Virus record (IMG/VR): IMGVR_UViG_3300034073_001700
Location: 1 to 64,000 of that record
DNA length: 64,000 nucleotides
Origin: a virus
Strand: one strand, 5' to 3'
How positions within the stretch are numbered: position 1 is the stretch's first letter; every line of letters begins with the position of its first letter. This document shows positions 1,469-63,242 of the stretch, piece by piece. A program made the position numbers and the translations under genes. The notes below the pieces were generated by a model. It saw only the letters and a list, made by a program, of their open reading frames with translations. It made no database searches and was not told where the DNA came from.

Positions 1469-3049
1469 CTATTCTGAAGATCTACCTTCACCCTTTGGGT
1501 TTCTACCGTTTAAAGTAGCAGGACCGTCAGACTGATTGTTAGTTCTCTCTCCATCCCTCGCACGTTCTGGATCTGGCTTAGGCTGGAAAGGCTCGTCTCC
1601 TCCTTCCCTTTGTGGAAGACCCAATACAGATCTTGCCTCGTTAGGAAGCATAACTTGAGTCTTTACATATCGTTCCAAAATCTGAGACTGTGCTATTTCG
1701 TCTGTCAAGGTTAGTTCTTTAAACTTTAAAACCAACACATCTGTTTTTTCTTTAATAATTTTATTTAATGTCTTTTCTAATTCTTTTTGTGCTGGTCTAG
1801 CAACTTGTTCTTTAAATGTACGGTCTTGTGCAAGTGCTGCTGCTATTGAGCCAGAGTCTCCTCCGCCAATTTTAGATAGCGGTACTTGGTGTGCTATTAA
1901 AATGTCATCACGGTTCTGATTACGATATCTCTCAAATGAGCCTTCCTGTACGCCATTCTCAATAGGCTCCATCTTAAACTCAACCTTATTTGTATCGCTA
2001 TCTCCAGGAAGGGGTATGTATAGCGTTCTGTGTGACTGTCCTTTAAGACTTGTCTGTAAAAATCTAAACATCTTATCTTCAGCGTCTGCCGAAAGTCTGG
2101 CGCCCTTTAGTGTCACAACATAACGAGGGACAGCCTTATTGCTAAAGTAGTCGATGTTATATTGTGACGCTAACTGGTCTCCATGGAGCGAGTTTATTGC
2201 CGACATTATATCTGGTACACCATAAAAAGTATTTAAAGGCGAATACTGTTTAAAGTGTATTATTTCATTAGGCCTTGGATCAGAGGTTACTGGATTAGTA
2301 TTCTTTGCTCCAAAGTTTCTGAAATAAACAACCTTTTGTCCAATGATTTGAACAAATCCATCACGTAGTCTACGAACACGCATAGTAGTTGCTGGAATAT
2401 GTCCTATATATCCAATTTCACCACGGGTGGTTCTGCCTACTTCTAAATATCCGTTACCAACGGCCTGCACGTCTGTATAAACTTTCATCATTGTTGTAGT
2501 AAATGAATCATCATCATTTAAAGATTCTATCCATTCGTGCATCTCAATCTTTGCACGTTCAATTCTATTTCTTGCTCTTTCAACTTGTCCAGAATCTTTA
2601 TTAGATTCCAAACGAAGCATTGTGCTTGGAGAAACCTCAAAGTCATATCCAAGGCCAACGATGTTTTCTACTTTTGCATCAATTGCAGCATGGTTAGCAA
2701 ACGATGTATCATAATAGTTAGCAAGTTCATAAACATTCCATGGTGGTGTTATTACATCAAATAATCCGTAGCCATTTCTATATACCGTGCCAGGATTTAT
2801 TTCTTTTGACTTAGCACCATCAATTCCAGACTGCTCTGCTCTTGCGCTATCAAGATATCCCTGGGTGGGATTCATTCTGTCTGCTTTTTCTACAAGCCTT
2901 GTTGTTCTTCTTCTAAAATTATTGTCCAAACCGTTGTATGACTTGAGTTCTCCCCAAGACTTATTAAACGGATCCTCTGCCTTAAATTGATCTAGTGGAT
3001 TAACTAAATTATCAATACTAGCCTTAATAACGTATTCTTTTTCTTCCAT
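1469..3049 (-). CDS. Portal protein
   Basis: Forms the dodecameric ring at one capsid vertex through which DNA is packaged and ejected. The 526 residues fit the phage portal family: an N-terminal arm, a core with the pattern ITPPWNVYELANYYD and NEIIHFKQYSP, a helical stem region with IPLPGD, and a C-terminal region ending in a disordered Pro/Gly/Asp/Arg-rich tail. The DDILIAHQVPLSKIGG stretch is typical of portals. The start ATG overlaps the end of the upstream small gene and the protease gene follows after 66 bp. Confidence 0.9.
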   Translation of the reverse strand: MEEKEYVIKASIDNLVNPLDQFKAEDPFNKSWGELKSYNGLDNNFRRRTTRLVEKADRMNPTQGYLDSARAEQSGIDGAKSKEINPGTVYRNGYGLFDVITPPWNVYELANYYDTSFANHAAIDAKVENIVGLGYDFEVSPSTMLRLESNKDSGQVERARNRIERAKIEMHEWIESLNDDDSFTTTMMKVYTDVQAVGNGYLEVGRTTRGEIGYIGHIPATTMRVRRLRDGFVQIIGQKVVYFRNFGAKNTNPVTSDPRPNEIIHFKQYSPLNTFYGVPDIMSAINSLHGDQLASQYNIDYFSNKAVPRYVVTLKGARLSADAEDKMFRFLQTSLKGQSHRTLYIPLPGDSDTNKVEFKMEPIENGVQEGSFERYRNQNRDDILIAHQVPLSKIGGGDSGSIAAALAQDRTFKEQVARPAQKELEKTLNKIIKEKTDVLVLKFKELTLTDEIAQSQILERYVKTQVMLPNEARSVLGLPQREGGDEPFQPKPDPERARDGERTNNQSDGPATLNGRNPKGEGRSSE

Positions 3050-55718: not shown

Positions 55719-56582
55719 ATGAAGTTTTGTTATTTTGGTGGAAATGTTTCTTTAACACAATCAAATATAGATCAACTTGAGGATGCCCATTTTGAATCAG
55801 TGCTATTTACATATAGGCAAATGCAAGGAGATTTTTTCACTACTATAGCAAGAACAATGAGGTTAGATCAAAAAATAAAATATATGGTTGCTATTAGGCC
55901 GCATGCTTTGTCAGCACAATATTTAACTATGATAAACAAATCAATCAATAGCATACAAAAAAATAGGCTACAAATTAATATCATTGCGGGACATATAAAG
56001 CCTGATGAAGTTGACTTTGGAGGAATTATTGGTGCAGTAACTGATCGTTCTTCAGTTCCAGATAGAACAGATTACATGATAGACTACATTAAAGAACTTG
56101 ACAATATGAAAAAAAATAATATTGATATTCCAGACTGTTATGTTTCTTGTACCAATAACTTTTCCTTAGAGGCAGCAGCCGAACTTGACTATAAAATAAT
56201 TTTTTCTTACAAAGATTACAAGTTTGGATATTTTTTAGATAAAAGCGTAGAAGGTCAGGAAAAGCCTGGGGATACTTTTGATTTATCTGGTAAAAAGATA
56301 ACATTGGCAATATCTCCAATCATAAGAGAGACCCAGGAAGAAATAGACAGCGAGTTTCCAAAAGATGTAATTGTTCACCTATACGGTGGCAAGTCATATA
56401 AAGATAGACCAAGATTTGCAAAAGATACAGCATATTTTACGTATGACAGGTTTGTTACTTTTATAAAAGAATTAGAAGAAAGTGGTATTAAAGAAATTCT
56501 TCTAAACGGAATACCTGAATCTGAAAGAAATAATTTAATTAGTTACGTTAAGAGGTATATAGAAGAACATGGAAATAATTAA
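55719..56582 (+). CDS. Luciferase-like (LLM) flavin oxidoreductase
   Basis: 287 residues. IRPHALSAQYLTMINKSINSI then RLQINIIAGHI is the TIM-barrel strand-helix pattern of bacterial luciferase-like FMN/F420 enzymes; VSCTNNFSLEAAAELDYKII and IKEILLNGIPESE also fit. Leaderless: TATAAT 6 nt before the ATG. Shorter than most relatives (usual ~330). Its end overlaps the oxygenase-like 56569 gene by 14 nt, so the two are made together. Substrate unknown. Confidence 0.75.
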   Translation: MKFCYFGGNVSLTQSNIDQLEDAHFESVLFTYRQMQGDFFTTIARTMRLDQKIKYMVAIRPHALSAQYLTMINKSINSIQKNRLQINIIAGHIKPDEVDFGGIIGAVTDRSSVPDRTDYMIDYIKELDNMKKNNIDIPDCYVSCTNNFSLEAAAELDYKIIFSYKDYKFGYFLDKSVEGQEKPGDTFDLSGKKITLAISPIIRETQEEIDSEFPKDVIVHLYGGKSYKDRPRFAKDTAYFTYDRFVTFIKELEESGIKEILLNGIPESERNNLISYVKRYIEEHGNN

Positions 56583-58576: not shown

Positions 58577-58650
58577 GGAGCAGTAGCCAAGTTGGTCAAG
58601 GCCCCGAACTCATAATTCGGTTATCGTAGGTTCGAGTCCTACCTGCTCTA
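58577..58650 (+). tRNA. tRNA-Met (CAT)
   Basis: 74 nt. Acceptor GGAGCAG/CTGCTCT, anticodon stem CCGAA/TTCGG around CTCATAA, T arm GTAGG-TTCGAGT-CCTAC. CAT means Met or, if the C is modified, Ile for AUA. It lacks initiator features. Confidence 0.9.
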
Positions 58651-58670
58651 CAGTGATACAATAGAATAAT

Positions 58671-58743
58671 TGATCTGTAGTTCAGTTGGTAGAACACTCG
58701 ACTGTTAATCGAGATGTCGCAGGATCGAGACCTGCCAGATCAG
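58671..58743 (+). tRNA. tRNA-Asn (GTT)
   Basis: 73 nt. Acceptor TGATCTG/CAGATCA, anticodon loop CTGTTAA, T arm GCAGG/CCTGC. All arms pair. Confidence 0.93.
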
Positions 58744-58747
58744 CGAA

Positions 58748-58821
58748 GGTCCGTTAGTTCAGTTGGTTAGAACGCTACCCTGTCACGGTAGAGGTCGTGA
58801 GTTCAAGTCTCATACGGATCG
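58748..58821 (+). tRNA. tRNA-Asp (GTC)
   Basis: 74 nt. Acceptor GGTCCGT/ACGGATC, anticodon loop CTGTCAC, T arm GTGAG/CTCAT (one G-T). Cloverleaf complete. Confidence 0.93.
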
Positions 58822-58823
58822 CA

Positions 58824-58896
58824 GAGAAGGTAGGTGCTGTATGTGTGCCAGGGAAAAGGGAAACACATGTATAGCAAGTTGCAACCCTACCTTCTC
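58824..58896 (+). ncRNA. Long hairpin RNA between tRNA genes
   Basis: GAGAAGGTAGG (58824-58834) pairs with CCTACCTTCTC (58886-58896) over 11 bp; inner arms TGTGT/ACACA extend the stem with a bulge. It is tRNA-sized and lies in the tRNA run, yet has no T loop or anticodon arm. It may be a tRNA remnant or a separate structured RNA. Confidence 0.5.
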
Positions 58897-58904
58897 CCTA
58901 TTTT

Positions 58905-58976
58905 GGCACTATCGTCTATCGGCTAGGACATCGCCCTTTCACGGCGGAAAGACGGGTTCGATTCCCGTTAGTGCTA
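58905..58976 (+). tRNA. tRNA-Glu (TTC)
   Basis: 72 nt. Acceptor GGCACTA/TAGTGCT, anticodon loop CTTTCAC, T arm CGGG/CCCG. Fits GAA-rich codon use. Confidence 0.93.
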
Positions 58977-59004
58977 CACTTTAAAGTTATGGTATTATAT
59001 AGAG

Positions 59005-59688
59005 ATGGAAAAAATATATTTAGATGAAGACAAAAAGGTTTGGATTATTGAAAACTTCCTTACCGAAGAAGAACTAAAATGGTTTAAAGAGCAAACCGAC
59101 GATGAAAATGGGTGGTACCCAACAATGAGGTCTCCATATAGAAATATATTAAATAAATTTTTAAATATCGTTCCAAGATATGACGACACTGGTAACATTA
59201 TATTCCCAGATGAAAACTCTCAAGTATTACAACTAGAAATTTTTACTAAACCTGGCGGAATTTGGGATAGACTTGAATCTGTATTGCCACCAGTATATGG
59301 AAGACATGCTACATTACAATCTTTTAAGTATATGACAGATGAAGAAATAAAGGAAGCAGTAAACGATACATTATTAAGAGAATATAAGATTAAAGTTGAA
59401 GATATAGACTTTGCTATGTACTGGCATCAAGATCCAGATGAAGAGCAGAACATAATTTGTTCTTTTAGTCTTTACCTAAACGACGACTTTGAAGGTGGAG
59501 AATTGGAATTTGCAGAAGTTCCAATCAAACTAAAGCCAAAGGCTGGGACCTTGGCCGTAATACCTGGCGGACATAAGTATCGACATAGGGTAAATAAGGT
59601 GTTAGGCCCTAATTCACGTCATACCCTATATGGAAACTCTTTTATAGATGCTTCTAAGATACCTCAAAGCACAAAAGATGACTGCTAA
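59005..59688 (+). CDS. Fe(II)/2OG oxygenase (copy J)
   Basis: 227 residues. VWIIENFLTEEELKWFKEQ, GWYPTMRSPY are shared with copy I. Iron ligands H141-Q-D143 (MYWHQDPDEE) intact, core FSLYLNDDFEGGELEF, turn KPKAGTLAVIPG and distal H in YRHRVNKVLGPNSRHTLYG with Arg. Leaderless: TATTAT 6 nt before the ATG. Directly upstream of the peroxidase cassette. Confidence 0.88.
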   Translation: MEKIYLDEDKKVWIIENFLTEEELKWFKEQTDDENGWYPTMRSPYRNILNKFLNIVPRYDDTGNIIFPDENSQVLQLEIFTKPGGIWDRLESVLPPVYGRHATLQSFKYMTDEEIKEAVNDTLLREYKIKVEDIDFAMYWHQDPDEEQNIICSFSLYLNDDFEGGELEFAEVPIKLKPKAGTLAVIPGGHKYRHRVNKVLGPNSRHTLYGNSFIDASKIPQSTKDDC

Positions 59689-59730
59689 AAGAGTGTTATA
59701 ATAATCCCATAACCCCACAGGAGGTAATTG

Positions 59731-60546
59731 ATGAAATCAATTTACGATATCGAATTGGAATCAGCCGAAGGCGTTCCACACTTTATGCAACAGTTTAAGG
59801 GCAAAGCGATCATGCTTATCAACACAACAGTTGGTTGTGGAAATGCTGGTCAAATGCAACCCATTCAATGGATACAGGAAGACCTTGCGGGAGAAGATTT
59901 CTCCGTTGTTGCAATCCCAACAAATGATTTCTGTGGCCCAAGCATTACAAAAGGCAAGTGGTCTAAAGGAATTGAAAAAGGTTTAGACTCAAAGAACTAC
60001 GGAGAAGATGTATACGGAGTTACATTCCCATTCTCACAAATGATTACATCTAATCCAGCAGAGATTCCATTAGAGGCTCCATGGCTTGGAAAAGGCCCAG
60101 GACTTAACGGAAATGGAGAGCCTTTTGGAGAAAGACACGAACTTTATTTAGAAGTTTCAGAACAAATTAAAGCAATACAGTTAAAGAAAATAGAACTTGG
60201 TATTGTAGAAAGGACAGATTACGAATCACGTTATTTAAATGAACACAACGGTGGCTTGTATATGAACTGTAACTTTGAAAAATATTTAATTGATAAGGAC
60301 GGATATGTTGTTAAGCACTATCCTTGCACAACATTAAATTATGATGTTGAAAAGACACTCAAAGAAGACCTTTTAGAAAAGGGAATTTTTGCAAAAATGG
60401 GTCCAGATAGATCCCCTTCTATTTTTGACGAAGAAAACAGAGTTATCCGTGACCACATTCAGCGTCTTATGAATGGAGAAAAATCAATTATTAATCCTAG
60501 TAATACGCTAACAGAAAAGTCTAAAGAACCACTGACAATCTCATAA
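59731..60546 (+). CDS. Glutathione-peroxidase-like protein, long form
   Basis: 271 residues. NTTVGCGNAGQMQPIQW sits where GPx has VASKCGLTPQY, with C36 as peroxidatic candidate; NFEKYLIDKDGYVVKHY is the late GPx strand with the W-N-F-E-K region. Longer than usual (~160) by an inserted central part and a tail. The expected Gln and Trp of the triad are not clear, so it may be a modified thioredoxin-fold peroxidase. Start behind GGAGG. Confidence 0.7.
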   Translation: MKSIYDIELESAEGVPHFMQQFKGKAIMLINTTVGCGNAGQMQPIQWIQEDLAGEDFSVVAIPTNDFCGPSITKGKWSKGIEKGLDSKNYGEDVYGVTFPFSQMITSNPAEIPLEAPWLGKGPGLNGNGEPFGERHELYLEVSEQIKAIQLKKIELGIVERTDYESRYLNEHNGGLYMNCNFEKYLIDKDGYVVKHYPCTTLNYDVEKTLKEDLLEKGIFAKMGPDRSPSIFDEENRVIRDHIQRLMNGEKSIINPSNTLTEKSKEPLTIS

Positions 60547-60557
60547 AAATATAAACT

Positions 60558-60600
60558 ATTTTCTCCTATGGTATACTTAATATATAGCATAGGAGAAAAT
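60558..60600 (+). promoter_or_regulatory. Hairpin that hides the gpx ribosome site and holds a promoter in its loop
   Basis: ATTTTCTCCTATG (60558-60570) pairs perfectly over 13 bp with CATAGGAGAAAAT (60588-60600). The right arm holds the AGGAG ribosome site; the 17-nt loop holds TATACT (60572-60577) with TGG before it. Transcripts from upstream would mask the ribosome site; a transcript from the loop promoter would lack the left arm and be free. Confidence 0.7.
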
Positions 60601-60604
60601 TTTT

Positions 60605-61036
60605 ATGAGCATATATGATTTATCATTTACTGATAACAATAAAAATGTTATACAGTTAAAGAATTTTGAAGGAAAAAATATATTAATAGTCAACACTGCA
60701 AGTCATTGTGGAAATACCCCACAGTATGCAGATTTACAAAAAATACAAAGTGATTCGTTGGTTGTTATTGGCTTTCCTTGCAACCAGTTTGGTAATCAGG
60801 AGCCAGGAACCAATGATGAAATTAAGGCTTTTTGTACAACTAATTACGGTGTAACCTTCCCAGTGTCTGAAAAGGTAGAGGTTAATGGTCCTAACGCTCA
60901 CCCTATATATAAGTACTGCAAAGAGGCTACTGGAGTAAGTAATATTGGATGGAACTTTGAGAAGTTTTTAATATCTGCTGATGGGTCCATCTCTCATTAT
61001 CCTACATCTTGCCCAGTATCTGATATAATAAAATAA
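60605..61036 (+). CDS. Glutathione peroxidase (Cys type)
   Basis: 143 residues, compact GPx: IVNTASHCGNTPQY with peroxidatic C35, FPCNQFGNQEPGTN with the conserved Gln, C77 in AFCTTNYGVTFPV as resolving cysteine, and GWNFEKFLI with the Trp. The pattern of a Cys-type, thioredoxin-fed GPx that reduces H2O2 and lipid peroxides. Second gene of the peroxide cassette and under a regulatory hairpin. Confidence 0.85.
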   Translation: MSIYDLSFTDNNKNVIQLKNFEGKNILIVNTASHCGNTPQYADLQKIQSDSLVVIGFPCNQFGNQEPGTNDEIKAFCTTNYGVTFPVSEKVEVNGPNAHPIYKYCKEATGVSNIGWNFEKFLISADGSISHYPTSCPVSDIIK

Positions 61037-61057
61037 CTACTAGTAGAAAGAAGCATA

Positions 61058-63142
61058 ATGTCAGAAGCAAAATGCCCATTCACAGGCAATAGCCTAACAA
61101 ACGAAGGAACATATAATAAGGATTGGTGGCCAAACCAGTTAGATTTGTCTCCTTTAAGAAAAAATTCAGAAAAATCTGATCCTATGGGAGAAGACTTTGA
61201 CTACGCTAAAGAGTTTAATAGTTTAGATCTTGATACTCTTAAGGCTGATATTGAGGAAGTTATGACTACCTCGCAAGATTGGTGGCCTGCCGATTACGGT
61301 AACTACGGCCCACTATTCATTCGTATGGCATGGCACTCTGCAGGTACATACAGAACAACTGATGGTCGTGGTGGCGCAGGAGAAGGCCTACATAGATTTG
61401 CTCCACAAAATTCATGGCCAGATAATGGTAATTTAGATAAGGCTCGAAGACTTCTTTGGCCTATTAAGAAGAAGTATGGAAAGAAGATTTCATGGGCAGA
61501 CCTCATGATTCTTGCTGGTAACGTTGCTTTAGAAAACATGGGCTTTAAGACTTTCGGTTTTGGTGGAGGTCGTGAAGATGTTTGGGAAGCAGATGATACT
61601 TACTGGGGTAGTGAAAAGGAATGGCTTGCAGACAATCGCTATAGCGGAGATCGTGAGTTAGAGAATCCTCTTGCTGCAGTTCAGATGGGTTTGATTTATG
61701 TAAACCCTGAGGGTCCAAATGGTAATCCAGATCCACTTCTATCTGCTCGTGATATTCGTGAGACATTTGCTCGTATGGCAATGAACGATGAAGAGACTGT
61801 AGCACTTATTGCTGGAGGACATGCATTTGGTAAAGCACATGGTGCTGGAGATCCTAAGCATGTTGGTCCAGAACCAGAAGGTGCACCAATTGAAGAACAA
61901 GGTCTTGGATGGAAAAATTCATTTGGAAAGGGTAATGCAGAAGATACTATTACAAGTGGTATCGAAGGTGCATGGACTCCAACTCCAACAAAGTGGGATA
62001 ACACCTACCTTAAACTATTATTTAAGTATGACTGGAAGCAGGTAAAGAGTCCTGCTGGTGCTACACAATGGATTCCCACAGATGAGTCTGCTGCTAATTT
62101 AGTTCCAGACGCACACGTTGAGGGTAAATTCCATGCTCCAGTTATGACAACTGCAGACTTAGCACTTAAGTTTGATCCAGAATATGAAAAGATTTCAAGA
62201 CGATTCCTTGAAGACTTTGACTATTTCTCTGATCAATTTGCTCGTGCCTGGTTTAAGTTGACGCATAGAGATATGGGTCCAATTGCAAGGTATCTTGGTA
62301 AAGAGGTTCCTGTAGAAGAACTAATTTGGCAGGACCCAGTTCCTGTATCAATTACAAAGGATATTGATGTAGAGAGTATTAAGAATAGAATTAAATCTTC
62401 TGATATTCCTATGTATCATTTTGTCTATACGGCATGGGCTTCTGCGTCTACCTTCCGCAAAACAGATAAGCGTGGTGGTGCAAATGGCGCTCGTATACTA
62501 CTTGAGCCACAGCGTAGTTGGGAAGTAAATGATAACTCAATAATTTCTAGCGCTGTTGATTTCCTTAGCACGGTTCAAAAAGAACATATGATTTCTATGG
62601 CAGATTTAATTGTTCTTGCTGGATGTGCAGCAATCGAAAAGGCTTCTGGAGAAAGAGTTAAGGTTCCATTTACTCCTGGTCGTGGAGATGCAACTCAAGA
62701 GCAGACCGATGTTGAGTCTTTCAAAGTTCTTGAACCTATCGCAGATGGCTTTAGAAATTATTTAGGAAAAGGCACTACAGTTCCTTCAGAAATTTTGTTG
62801 GTAGAGAAGGCTAATATGCTAAATCTAACCCCAGTAGAGATGGTTGTTCTTCTTGCTGGAATGAGAACATTAGTGATTGATACACTAAATAATGGCTATC
62901 TGATTAGTCTTTTGTCTGGACAAATTTCTTGGAAGCAAACATCTATTGATAATTTCCAAGGATATGTCAACGGAGAACTAGTTGGTAATGCAACTCGTGT
63001 TGATCTGATTACTGGATCAAACTCAGAACTCCGTGCTATTGCAGAGGTATATGCTTCTGACGATGCAAATGATAAGTTTGTGTCTGACTTTGCTAAAGCA
63101 TGGAATAAGGTAATGATGCTTGATAGGTTTGATGTCAAGTAA
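61058..63142 (+). CDS. katG: Catalase-peroxidase KatG
   Basis: 694 residues, both halves present. Breaks down H2O2 as catalase and peroxidase (EC 1.11.1.21). Active-site R89, W92, H93 ([12 protein letters not shown]), heme ligand H255 ([10 protein letters not shown]), and the W92-Y214-M240 adduct needed for catalase activity are all there. Each lies 15 residues before its counterpart in the tuberculosis enzyme (R104, W107, H108, Y229, M255, H270). The C-terminal copy ([20 protein letters not shown]) lacks heme ligands as usual. AGAAAGAAG before the ATG; 21 bp after gpx. Confidence 0.97.
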
Positions 63143-63154
63143 TAAGTAGGGGTT

Positions 63155-63226
63155 GCCTCCTTAACTCAGGGGTAGAGTACCCGCCTTGTAAGCGGGTTGT
63201 CGTAGGTTCAAATCCTACAGGAGGCT
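63155..63226 (+). tRNA. tRNA-Thr (TGT)
   Basis: 72 nt. Acceptor GCCTCCT/AGGAGGC, anticodon loop CTTGTAA, T arm GTAGG/CCTAC. Reads ACA codons. Separate from the main tRNA run. Confidence 0.93.
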
Positions 63227-63242
63227 CTGATATAATTTAATT

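What the first reader, a model, noticed from the sequence alone, without database searches (positions are those of the whole stretch)
59731..63142. Peroxide-defence cassette in a phage: two GPx-like proteins and an intact KatG
KatG keeps every catalytic residue and the W-Y-M adduct at collinear positions (offset 15). With C35/C77 GPx and a longer GPx-like gene in one rightward run, the phage could detoxify H2O2 for its host. A full katG in a phage is unusual to my knowledge. It would matter for aquatic hosts exposed to photochemical peroxide, and may make peroxide clearance a virus-borne trait.
Basis: partly seen in the sequence, partly recalled or inferred. Interest (0 to 1): 0.9.

Follow-up and report, generated by a model that had tools for sequence, protein, structure and literature searches.

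The report
Catalase gene carried by freshwater actinophages
A freshwater virus of actinobacteria carries a complete, selection-maintained gene for the peroxide-destroying enzyme KatG, and so do well over a hundred other virus fragments, so it is a real and widespread cargo gene rather than a one-off; whether the enzyme works has not been tested.

Summary
The genes are real. A 120-kb virus contig encodes a full KatG (61058-63142), a thioredoxin-type GPx (60605-61036) and a longer, degenerate GPx-like protein (59731-60546). It is a genuine actinophage: portal, head protease, DnaE and WhiB are present, and its nearest isolates are ~130-kb Streptomyces phages. It is not a chimera, because independent contigs repeat the context. 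At least 147 IMG/VR contigs encode KatG relatives. The 81 KatGs examined (80 plus the window) form one clade with intact catalytic residues and dN/dS about 0.1 in most pairs, branching beside KatG of the freshwater actinobacterial order Nanopelagicales (acI). The gene sits in the phage tRNA array (53 of 63 distinct copies within 500 bp of a tRNA) and has moved between distant phage lineages. The four-gene "cassette" is a juxtaposition: the conserved unit is 2OG-oxygenase + GPx-like + GPx; katG is independent cargo. Viral katG and phage ROS defence are already published. New here: single origin from acI-type KatG, the tRNA slot, phage-to-phage exchange, and the trio. Caveat: the closest cellular KatGs include one reported as non-functional despite intact residues, and acI hosts are heme auxotrophs, so activity is unproven.

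The parts
61058..63142 (+). katG, catalase-peroxidase, 694 aa
   Evidence: Above both NCBIfam cut-offs; active-site residues intact in 81/81 viral copies; fold matches solved KatG, TM 0.82
60605..61036 (+). GPx, thioredoxin-type glutathione-peroxidase-family protein, 143 aa
   Evidence: Pfam 129.5 bits; C35, Q61, W116, N117 and C77 conserved in 52/52 distinct viral copies
59731..60546 (+). GPxL, divergent GPx-like protein, 271 aa (ATG start; the ORF list begins at TTG 59728)
   Evidence: Pfam 35.3 bits; C36 (31/31), D66 and C68 (32/32 each) invariant, Q and W of the tetrad replaced; AGGAGGT 5 bp before the ATG
59005..59688 (+). 2OG-Fe(II) oxygenase, first gene of the conserved trio 2OG-GPxL-GPx
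   Evidence: PF13640 35.6 bits, cut-off 27; H141, D/E143, H194 and R205 kept in 40/40 distinct copies; trio synteny
58577..58977 (+). tRNA array upstream: Met 58577-58651, Asn 58671-58744, Asp 58748-58822, Glu 58905-58977
   Evidence: ARAGORN
63155..63227 (+). tRNA-Thr, 12 bp after the katG stop; closes the cargo slot
   Evidence: ARAGORN; the same katG-tRNA-Thr order in L003-L008, L026, L050, L081 and L082
60558..60600 (+). 13-bp inverted repeat; 3' arm holds the GPx Shine-Dalgarno, loop holds a -10-like TATACT
   Evidence: RNA fold -21.8 kcal/mol, z -5.3; paired changes in relatives
1469..3049 (-). portal protein (phage hallmark)
   Evidence: phrog_12, E 1.3e-53; 46-47% to Streptomyces phage portals
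68..1435 (-). head maturation protease (phage hallmark)
   Evidence: phrog_9427, E 1.7e-113

Best explanation
katG is a mobile auxiliary gene of large freshwater actinophages. It was acquired once from a KatG of the Nanopelagicales (acI) type, is kept in the phage tRNA array together with other exchangeable cargo, and is passed between phage lineages. During infection it is most likely translated in the actinobacterial host, loaded with host heme, forms the Met-Tyr-Trp adduct, and breaks down H2O2, protecting the infected cell, which has weak or no catalase of its own, until progeny are made. The neighbouring GPx most likely removes peroxides with thioredoxin as reductant. Shown here: gene integrity, purifying selection, phage context, origin, tRNA slot, exchange between phages. 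Inferred: expression, heme loading, activity, benefit, and the exact host genus.
For: Family scores above curated cut-offs. All 11 active-site and structural residues kept in 81/81 viral copies. dN/dS 0.03-0.20 in 15 of 16 informative pairs, 0.40 in one. Viral clade 100/100, sister L175 at 100/99, beside acI group A. WhiB in 17/18 phage records tested. DnaE and portal place the phage among Streptomyces-phage-like viruses. 53/63 distinct viral katG lie within 500 bp of a tRNA, against 7/125 cellular ones. KatG identity 76-89% between lineages whose DnaE is only 53-57% identical; rank correlation 0.20. Viral katG abundance and transcripts tracked in an estuary (PMC13390420). acI cultures need added catalase (PMC7527133).
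Against: The closest cellular KatGs include that of IMCC25003, for which PMC7527133 (citing Kim et al.) says the cloned protein was not a functional catalase although the known active-site residues of its group are present; intact residues therefore do not prove activity. Planktophila is reported heme-auxotrophic. Inner viral KatGs have lost two loops of the C-terminal domain. None of 19 long contigs with related portals carries katG, so it is dispensable.
Confidence: 0.62

Rival explanations
1. Viral KatG is made but acts mainly as a peroxidase or on other small substrates, not as a catalase; its catalatic activity is feeble, as reported for the acI group A enzyme.
For: Nearest relatives are group A KatGs, one of which was reported non-functional as a catalase; C-terminal loops trimmed.
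Against: All residues needed for catalatic turnover, including the M-Y-W adduct, D122 and R411, are kept in 81/81 copies. If catalase activity did not matter, these would be expected to drift.
Confidence: 0.2
2. The genes protect the phage-infected cell against the oxidative burst of grazing flagellates rather than against photochemical H2O2 (phage-mediated ROS defence).
For: Proposed for freshwater phages with GPx, SOD and thioredoxin (PMC6802176).
Against: No evidence here separates it from photochemical peroxide; it makes the same sequence predictions.
Confidence: 0.12
3. Assembly chimera or host contamination.
For: katG hits in isolate-phage records are contamination-like: host-sized bacterial segments or unannotated fragments, all under 60% identity.
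Against: Independent contigs from other metagenomes place katG in the same phage tRNA array with the same downstream phage gene (L003-L007, L026). L037 repeats the whole 2OG-GPxL-GPx-KatG run. Viral KatGs are a clade of their own. GC3 of katG (0.26) equals that of phage genes.
Confidence: 0.02
4. The conserved trio 2OG-GPxL-GPx does something other than peroxide removal, for example an oxygenase with a dedicated redox partner that modifies a virion or host molecule, and katG sits beside it by chance.
For: The trio is kept together in 29/35 distinct close GPx loci, katG in only 2. GPxL has lost the catalytic Gln and Trp but keeps C36 and C68.
Against: GPx itself has a full tetrad and resolving Cys, which fits peroxide reduction.
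Confidence: 0.35

Closest known systems
Bacterial catalase-peroxidase KatG (NCBIfam NF011635/TIGR00198; B. pseudomallei and M. tuberculosis KatG)
   Same: Whole length, two-domain layout, all catalytic residues and the M-Y-W triad; solved-structure match TM 0.82
   Different: 694 aa against a median 742 for cellular ORFs in the set; two C-terminal-domain loops lost in the inner viral clade; encoded by phages
KatG of Nanopelagicales / acI 'group A' (Ca. Planktophila rubra IMCC25003)
   Same: Nearest cellular kin, 66-70% identical; one clade with the viral KatGs (98 UFBoot / 70 SH-aLRT)
   Different: Viral copies form a separate clade (100/100) with sister L175 from one Nanopelagicales-order genome; far lower GC (median 0.40 against 0.48)
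katG as a viral auxiliary metabolic gene (Lake Mendota series, cited in PMC12713726; estuary, PMC13390420)
   Same: Virus-borne katG in freshwater or low-salinity water, interpreted as peroxide defence
   Different: The passages read do not give the single clade, the acI-type origin, the actinophage hosts, the tRNA slot or the exchange; the Mendota paper itself was not held
Phage-mediated ROS defence of freshwater phages (PMC6802176)
   Same: Freshwater phages with glutathione peroxidase, many of them WhiB-bearing actinophages
   Different: The main text names no catalase ('catalase' 0 occurrences); no 2OG-GPxL-GPx trio found mentioned
Streptomyces phages of about 130 kb with DnaE (Bmoc, Wakanda, BillNye and others)
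   Same: DnaE about 55%, portal about 47%, similar genome size
   Different: None of the isolates has katG or GPxL

Membership tests
Catalase-peroxidase (KatG) | Score above the curated family cut-off over the full length | tested here: met
   1113.5 against 981 bits, residues 2-694
Catalase-peroxidase (KatG) | Distal Arg/Trp/His, proximal His/Trp/Asp | tested here: met
   R89 W92 H93; H255 W306 D367; 81/81 viral
Catalase-peroxidase (KatG) | Met-Tyr-Trp adduct residues and mobile Arg | tested here: met
   W92-Y214-M240, R411; 81/81. Adduct formation itself not testable
Catalase-peroxidase (KatG) | Duplicated peroxidase domain architecture with intact C-terminal domain | tested here: met
   Both domains match the Pfam peroxidase model and solved KatG; two C-terminal loops shortened
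Catalase-peroxidase (KatG) | Catalase and peroxidase activity with bound heme | not testable with these tools
   Needs purified enzyme
GPx, thioredoxin-dependent 2-Cys type (60605-61036) | Cys/Gln/Trp/Asn tetrad and resolving Cys | tested here: met
   C35 Q61 W116 N117 and C77, 52/52; the resolving role of C77 is from family knowledge
GPx applied to GPxL (59731-60546) | Pfam GSHPx gathering score | tested here: met
   35.3 against 27 bits over residues 5-109 only
GPx applied to GPxL (59731-60546) | Catalytic tetrad Cys/Gln/Trp/Asn | tested here: not met
   Cys and Asn kept, Gln is Asp (32/32), Trp is Ala or Cys (32/32)
Virus-borne auxiliary metabolic gene | Carried by a genuine virus, flanked by virus genes | tested here: met
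Virus-borne auxiliary metabolic gene | Changes host metabolism during infection to the virus's benefit | not testable with these tools
   Needs infection experiments

The most novel reading that the evidence does not exclude
Phages supply working catalase to freshwater actinobacteria that have lost it. Viral KatG, derived from an acI-type enzyme but evolving separately, would be a functional replacement that infected acI cells receive from a katG pool circulating among phages in a tRNA-array cargo slot. Viruses would then be part of the answer to how catalase-poor acI live in sunlit water.
Probability: 0.25. Interest if true: 0.75.

Novelty: new member of a known kind. Interest (0 to 1): 0.5.

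Why it matters
acI actinobacteria are among the most abundant freshwater bacteria, resisted axenic culture until catalase was added, and have patchy or feeble KatG of their own. A large set of their likely phages carrying intact katG in an exchangeable slot makes it directly testable whether infection changes peroxide tolerance, and offers candidate active KatGs for comparison with the reportedly inactive acI enzyme. The trio 2OG-GPxL-GPx is a second, more conserved unit of unknown purpose that would have been missed by reading the run as one peroxide cassette.

Tried and rejected
Assembly chimera: rejected (independent contigs with the same context; separate clade). KatG in isolate phages: the seven records are contamination-like and under 60% identical. 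Co-inheritance of katG with the phage core: not supported (rank correlation 0.20, 243 of 5000 permutations as high). katG as a core gene of this phage group: rejected (0 of 19 long portal relatives; the tool warns that fragments can miss a gene). A four-gene operon conserved as such: rejected. Prophage or other host link through the phage portal in Nanopelagicales genomes: one partial hit (80%) on a short contig in 1 of 296 genomes, too weak to count. AlphaFold model of KatG is moderate (pLDDT 72, shallow alignment), used only to confirm the fold; the GPxL model is poor (pLDDT 57), so no fold search was run on it. The Lake Mendota and Kim et al. papers are not held, so their content is taken from papers that cite them.

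Full report
WHAT IS THERE. The three ORFs exist as described: GPxL 59731-60546, GPx 60605-61036, KatG 61058-63142, all +. A 2OG-Fe(II) oxygenase (59005-59688) stands directly before them, and the run sits inside a tRNA array: Met, Asn, Asp, Glu at 58577-58977 and Thr at 63155-63227, 12 bp after the katG stop. KatG passes both curated family cut-offs.

IT IS A PHAGE. The window lies in an IMG/VR virus record of 120,142 bases. It encodes a head maturation protease, portal, ribonucleotide reductase and tail fibre proteins, and in the other half DnaE-type DNA polymerase, DnaB helicase, a weak terminase match, carbamoyltransferase and tryptophan halogenase. The nearest isolates are Streptomyces phages of about 130 kb: DnaE 55%, portal 47%. 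A WhiB gene, typical of actinobacteria and their phages, is in this record (G000:73047-73220) and in 17 of 18 related records tested. The host is therefore very likely an actinobacterium (inference). The order Nanopelagicales is the best guess from KatG kinship; it is not shown.

IT IS NOT A CHIMERA AND NOT RARE. A scan of IMG/VR found 147 stretches encoding KatG relatives; the best 80 are 73-89% identical. In L003-L007 the same tRNA array, katG, in most of them tRNA-Thr, and the same downstream phage gene (87-91% identical) recur in contigs from other samples. Annotated isolate phages hold only contamination-like katG records below 60% identity. The third-position GC of katG (0.26) equals that of the phage's structural genes (0.24-0.33).

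INTACT AND UNDER SELECTION. All 11 active-site and structural residues checked are conserved in 81 of 81 viral KatGs. dN/dS between viral pairs is 0.03-0.20 in 15 of 16 informative pairs and 0.40 in one. A model of the window protein, of moderate confidence, matches solved KatGs along the whole length, TM 0.82. Viral KatGs are shorter (median 687 against 742 aa for cellular ORFs, whose starts may be over-extended): two loops of the C-terminal domain are missing in the inner viral clade but present in the basal members L031, L050 and L010, which points to trimming after acquisition (inference).

ORIGIN. In FastTree and IQ-TREE with a mixture model the viral KatGs are one clade (100/100). The sister is L175 (100/99), a KatG on a bacterial contig with ptsI and a transporter beside it from a genome in the order of IMCC25003. 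Around them lie the acI group A KatGs (98 bootstrap, 70 SH-aLRT, so only moderately supported). The simplest reading is one transfer from a Nanopelagicales-type donor, followed by long evolution in phages. Nearest named cellular relative: IMCC25003, 67-70%.

CARGO THAT MOVES. Of 63 distinct viral katGs, 53 lie within 500 bp of a tRNA; of 125 cellular ones, 7 do. The katG-bearing phages fall into two lineages whose DnaEs are 53-57% identical, yet their KatGs are 76-89% identical. Examples: L051 and L079 have KatG 89% and DnaE 53%; L051 and L053 have KatG 87% and DnaE 54%. The rank correlation over 17 genomes is 0.20. None of 19 long contigs with portals 74-92% identical to this phage's carries katG. 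So katG is exchanged between phages and often absent. The same tRNA slot holds other cargo in relatives: a carbamoyltransferase pair, luciferase-like and halogenase genes.

THE 'CASSETTE' IS TWO THINGS. Among 35 distinct close GPx genes in virus contigs, 31 have GPxL directly upstream, 29 also the 2OG oxygenase, and only 2 have katG nearby. The trio 2OG-GPxL-GPx is the conserved unit. KatG joins it directly in the window and in L037; those two KatGs lie apart in the virus tree, so the junction probably formed twice (inference). GPx keeps the whole tetrad and the resolving Cys in 52 of 52 copies. GPxL keeps Cys36 and Asn181 but has Asp for Gln and Ala or Cys for Trp, and has its own invariant Cys68 and a long insertion. 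GPxL has no good relative in isolate phages. I therefore do not count GPxL as a peroxidase.

MECHANISM AND ITS LIMITS. Most likely the phage KatG removes H2O2 in the infected actinobacterium, with GPx as a thioredoxin-fed helper. The weak points are real. PMC7527133 reports, after Kim et al., that the cloned KatG of IMCC25003, in the group nearest to the viral clade, was not a functional catalase although the known active-site residues of that group are present, and that catalase had to be added to cultures. Heme auxotrophy is reported for Planktophila (PMC12381374). Sequence integrity thus does not settle activity.

WHAT WAS KNOWN. katG as a freshwater viral auxiliary gene is reported for Lake Mendota (cited in PMC12713726, listed as not validated), and viral katG abundance and transcripts were tracked in an estuary (PMC13390420). 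Phage-mediated ROS defence with glutathione peroxidases was proposed in 2019 (PMC6802176). I found no paper describing the single clade, the acI-type origin, the tRNA slot, the exchange between phages or the trio, but subscription papers and supplements were not searchable.

VERDICT. A real, widespread and ordinary-looking auxiliary gene in an interesting setting: a new member of a known kind. The testable point of interest is whether phage KatG is the working catalase that acI cells lack.

Noticed in passing
60558-60600: A 13-bp perfect inverted repeat before GPx hides its Shine-Dalgarno in the 3' arm and has a -10-like TATACT in the loop (fold z -5.3). It recurs in L324, L333, L335, L362 and L388 with paired changes. 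It resembles the arrangement of phage T4 gene e (from memory): silent in read-through RNA, translatable from a promoter in the loop.
   Followed up: partly
59005-61036; L324-L399: The trio 2OG-oxygenase, GPxL, GPx is conserved across many freshwater actinophage contigs, mostly without katG. Its function is unknown.
   Followed up: partly
58577-63227: The tRNA array is a cargo hotspot: in relatives it holds carbamoyltransferase, luciferase-like and tryptophan halogenase genes in place of or beside katG.
   Followed up: partly
L182, L185, L197, L207, L209, L210: A few cellular Nanopelagicales-order katGs also lie close to a tRNA (17-737 bp; L207 is group B). PMC7527133 reports the same for group B katGs; a tRNA-linked gain, perhaps by phage, is possible.
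   Followed up: no
G022, G055, G059, G071, G076, G081, G085, G112, G150, G179, G202: Several Nanopelagicales group A katG matches contain an in-frame stop. This may be decay or an over-extended match; positions were not examined.
   Followed up: no
55719-56582: A luciferase-like monooxygenase ORF (Pfam Bac_luciferase 24.1 bits, just under the 27.9 cut-off), with relatives in other katG loci.
   Followed up: no
G000:70027-71577 and 66639-68060: Tryptophan halogenase and Nol-like carbamoyltransferase genes in the same phage, outside the window.
   Followed up: no
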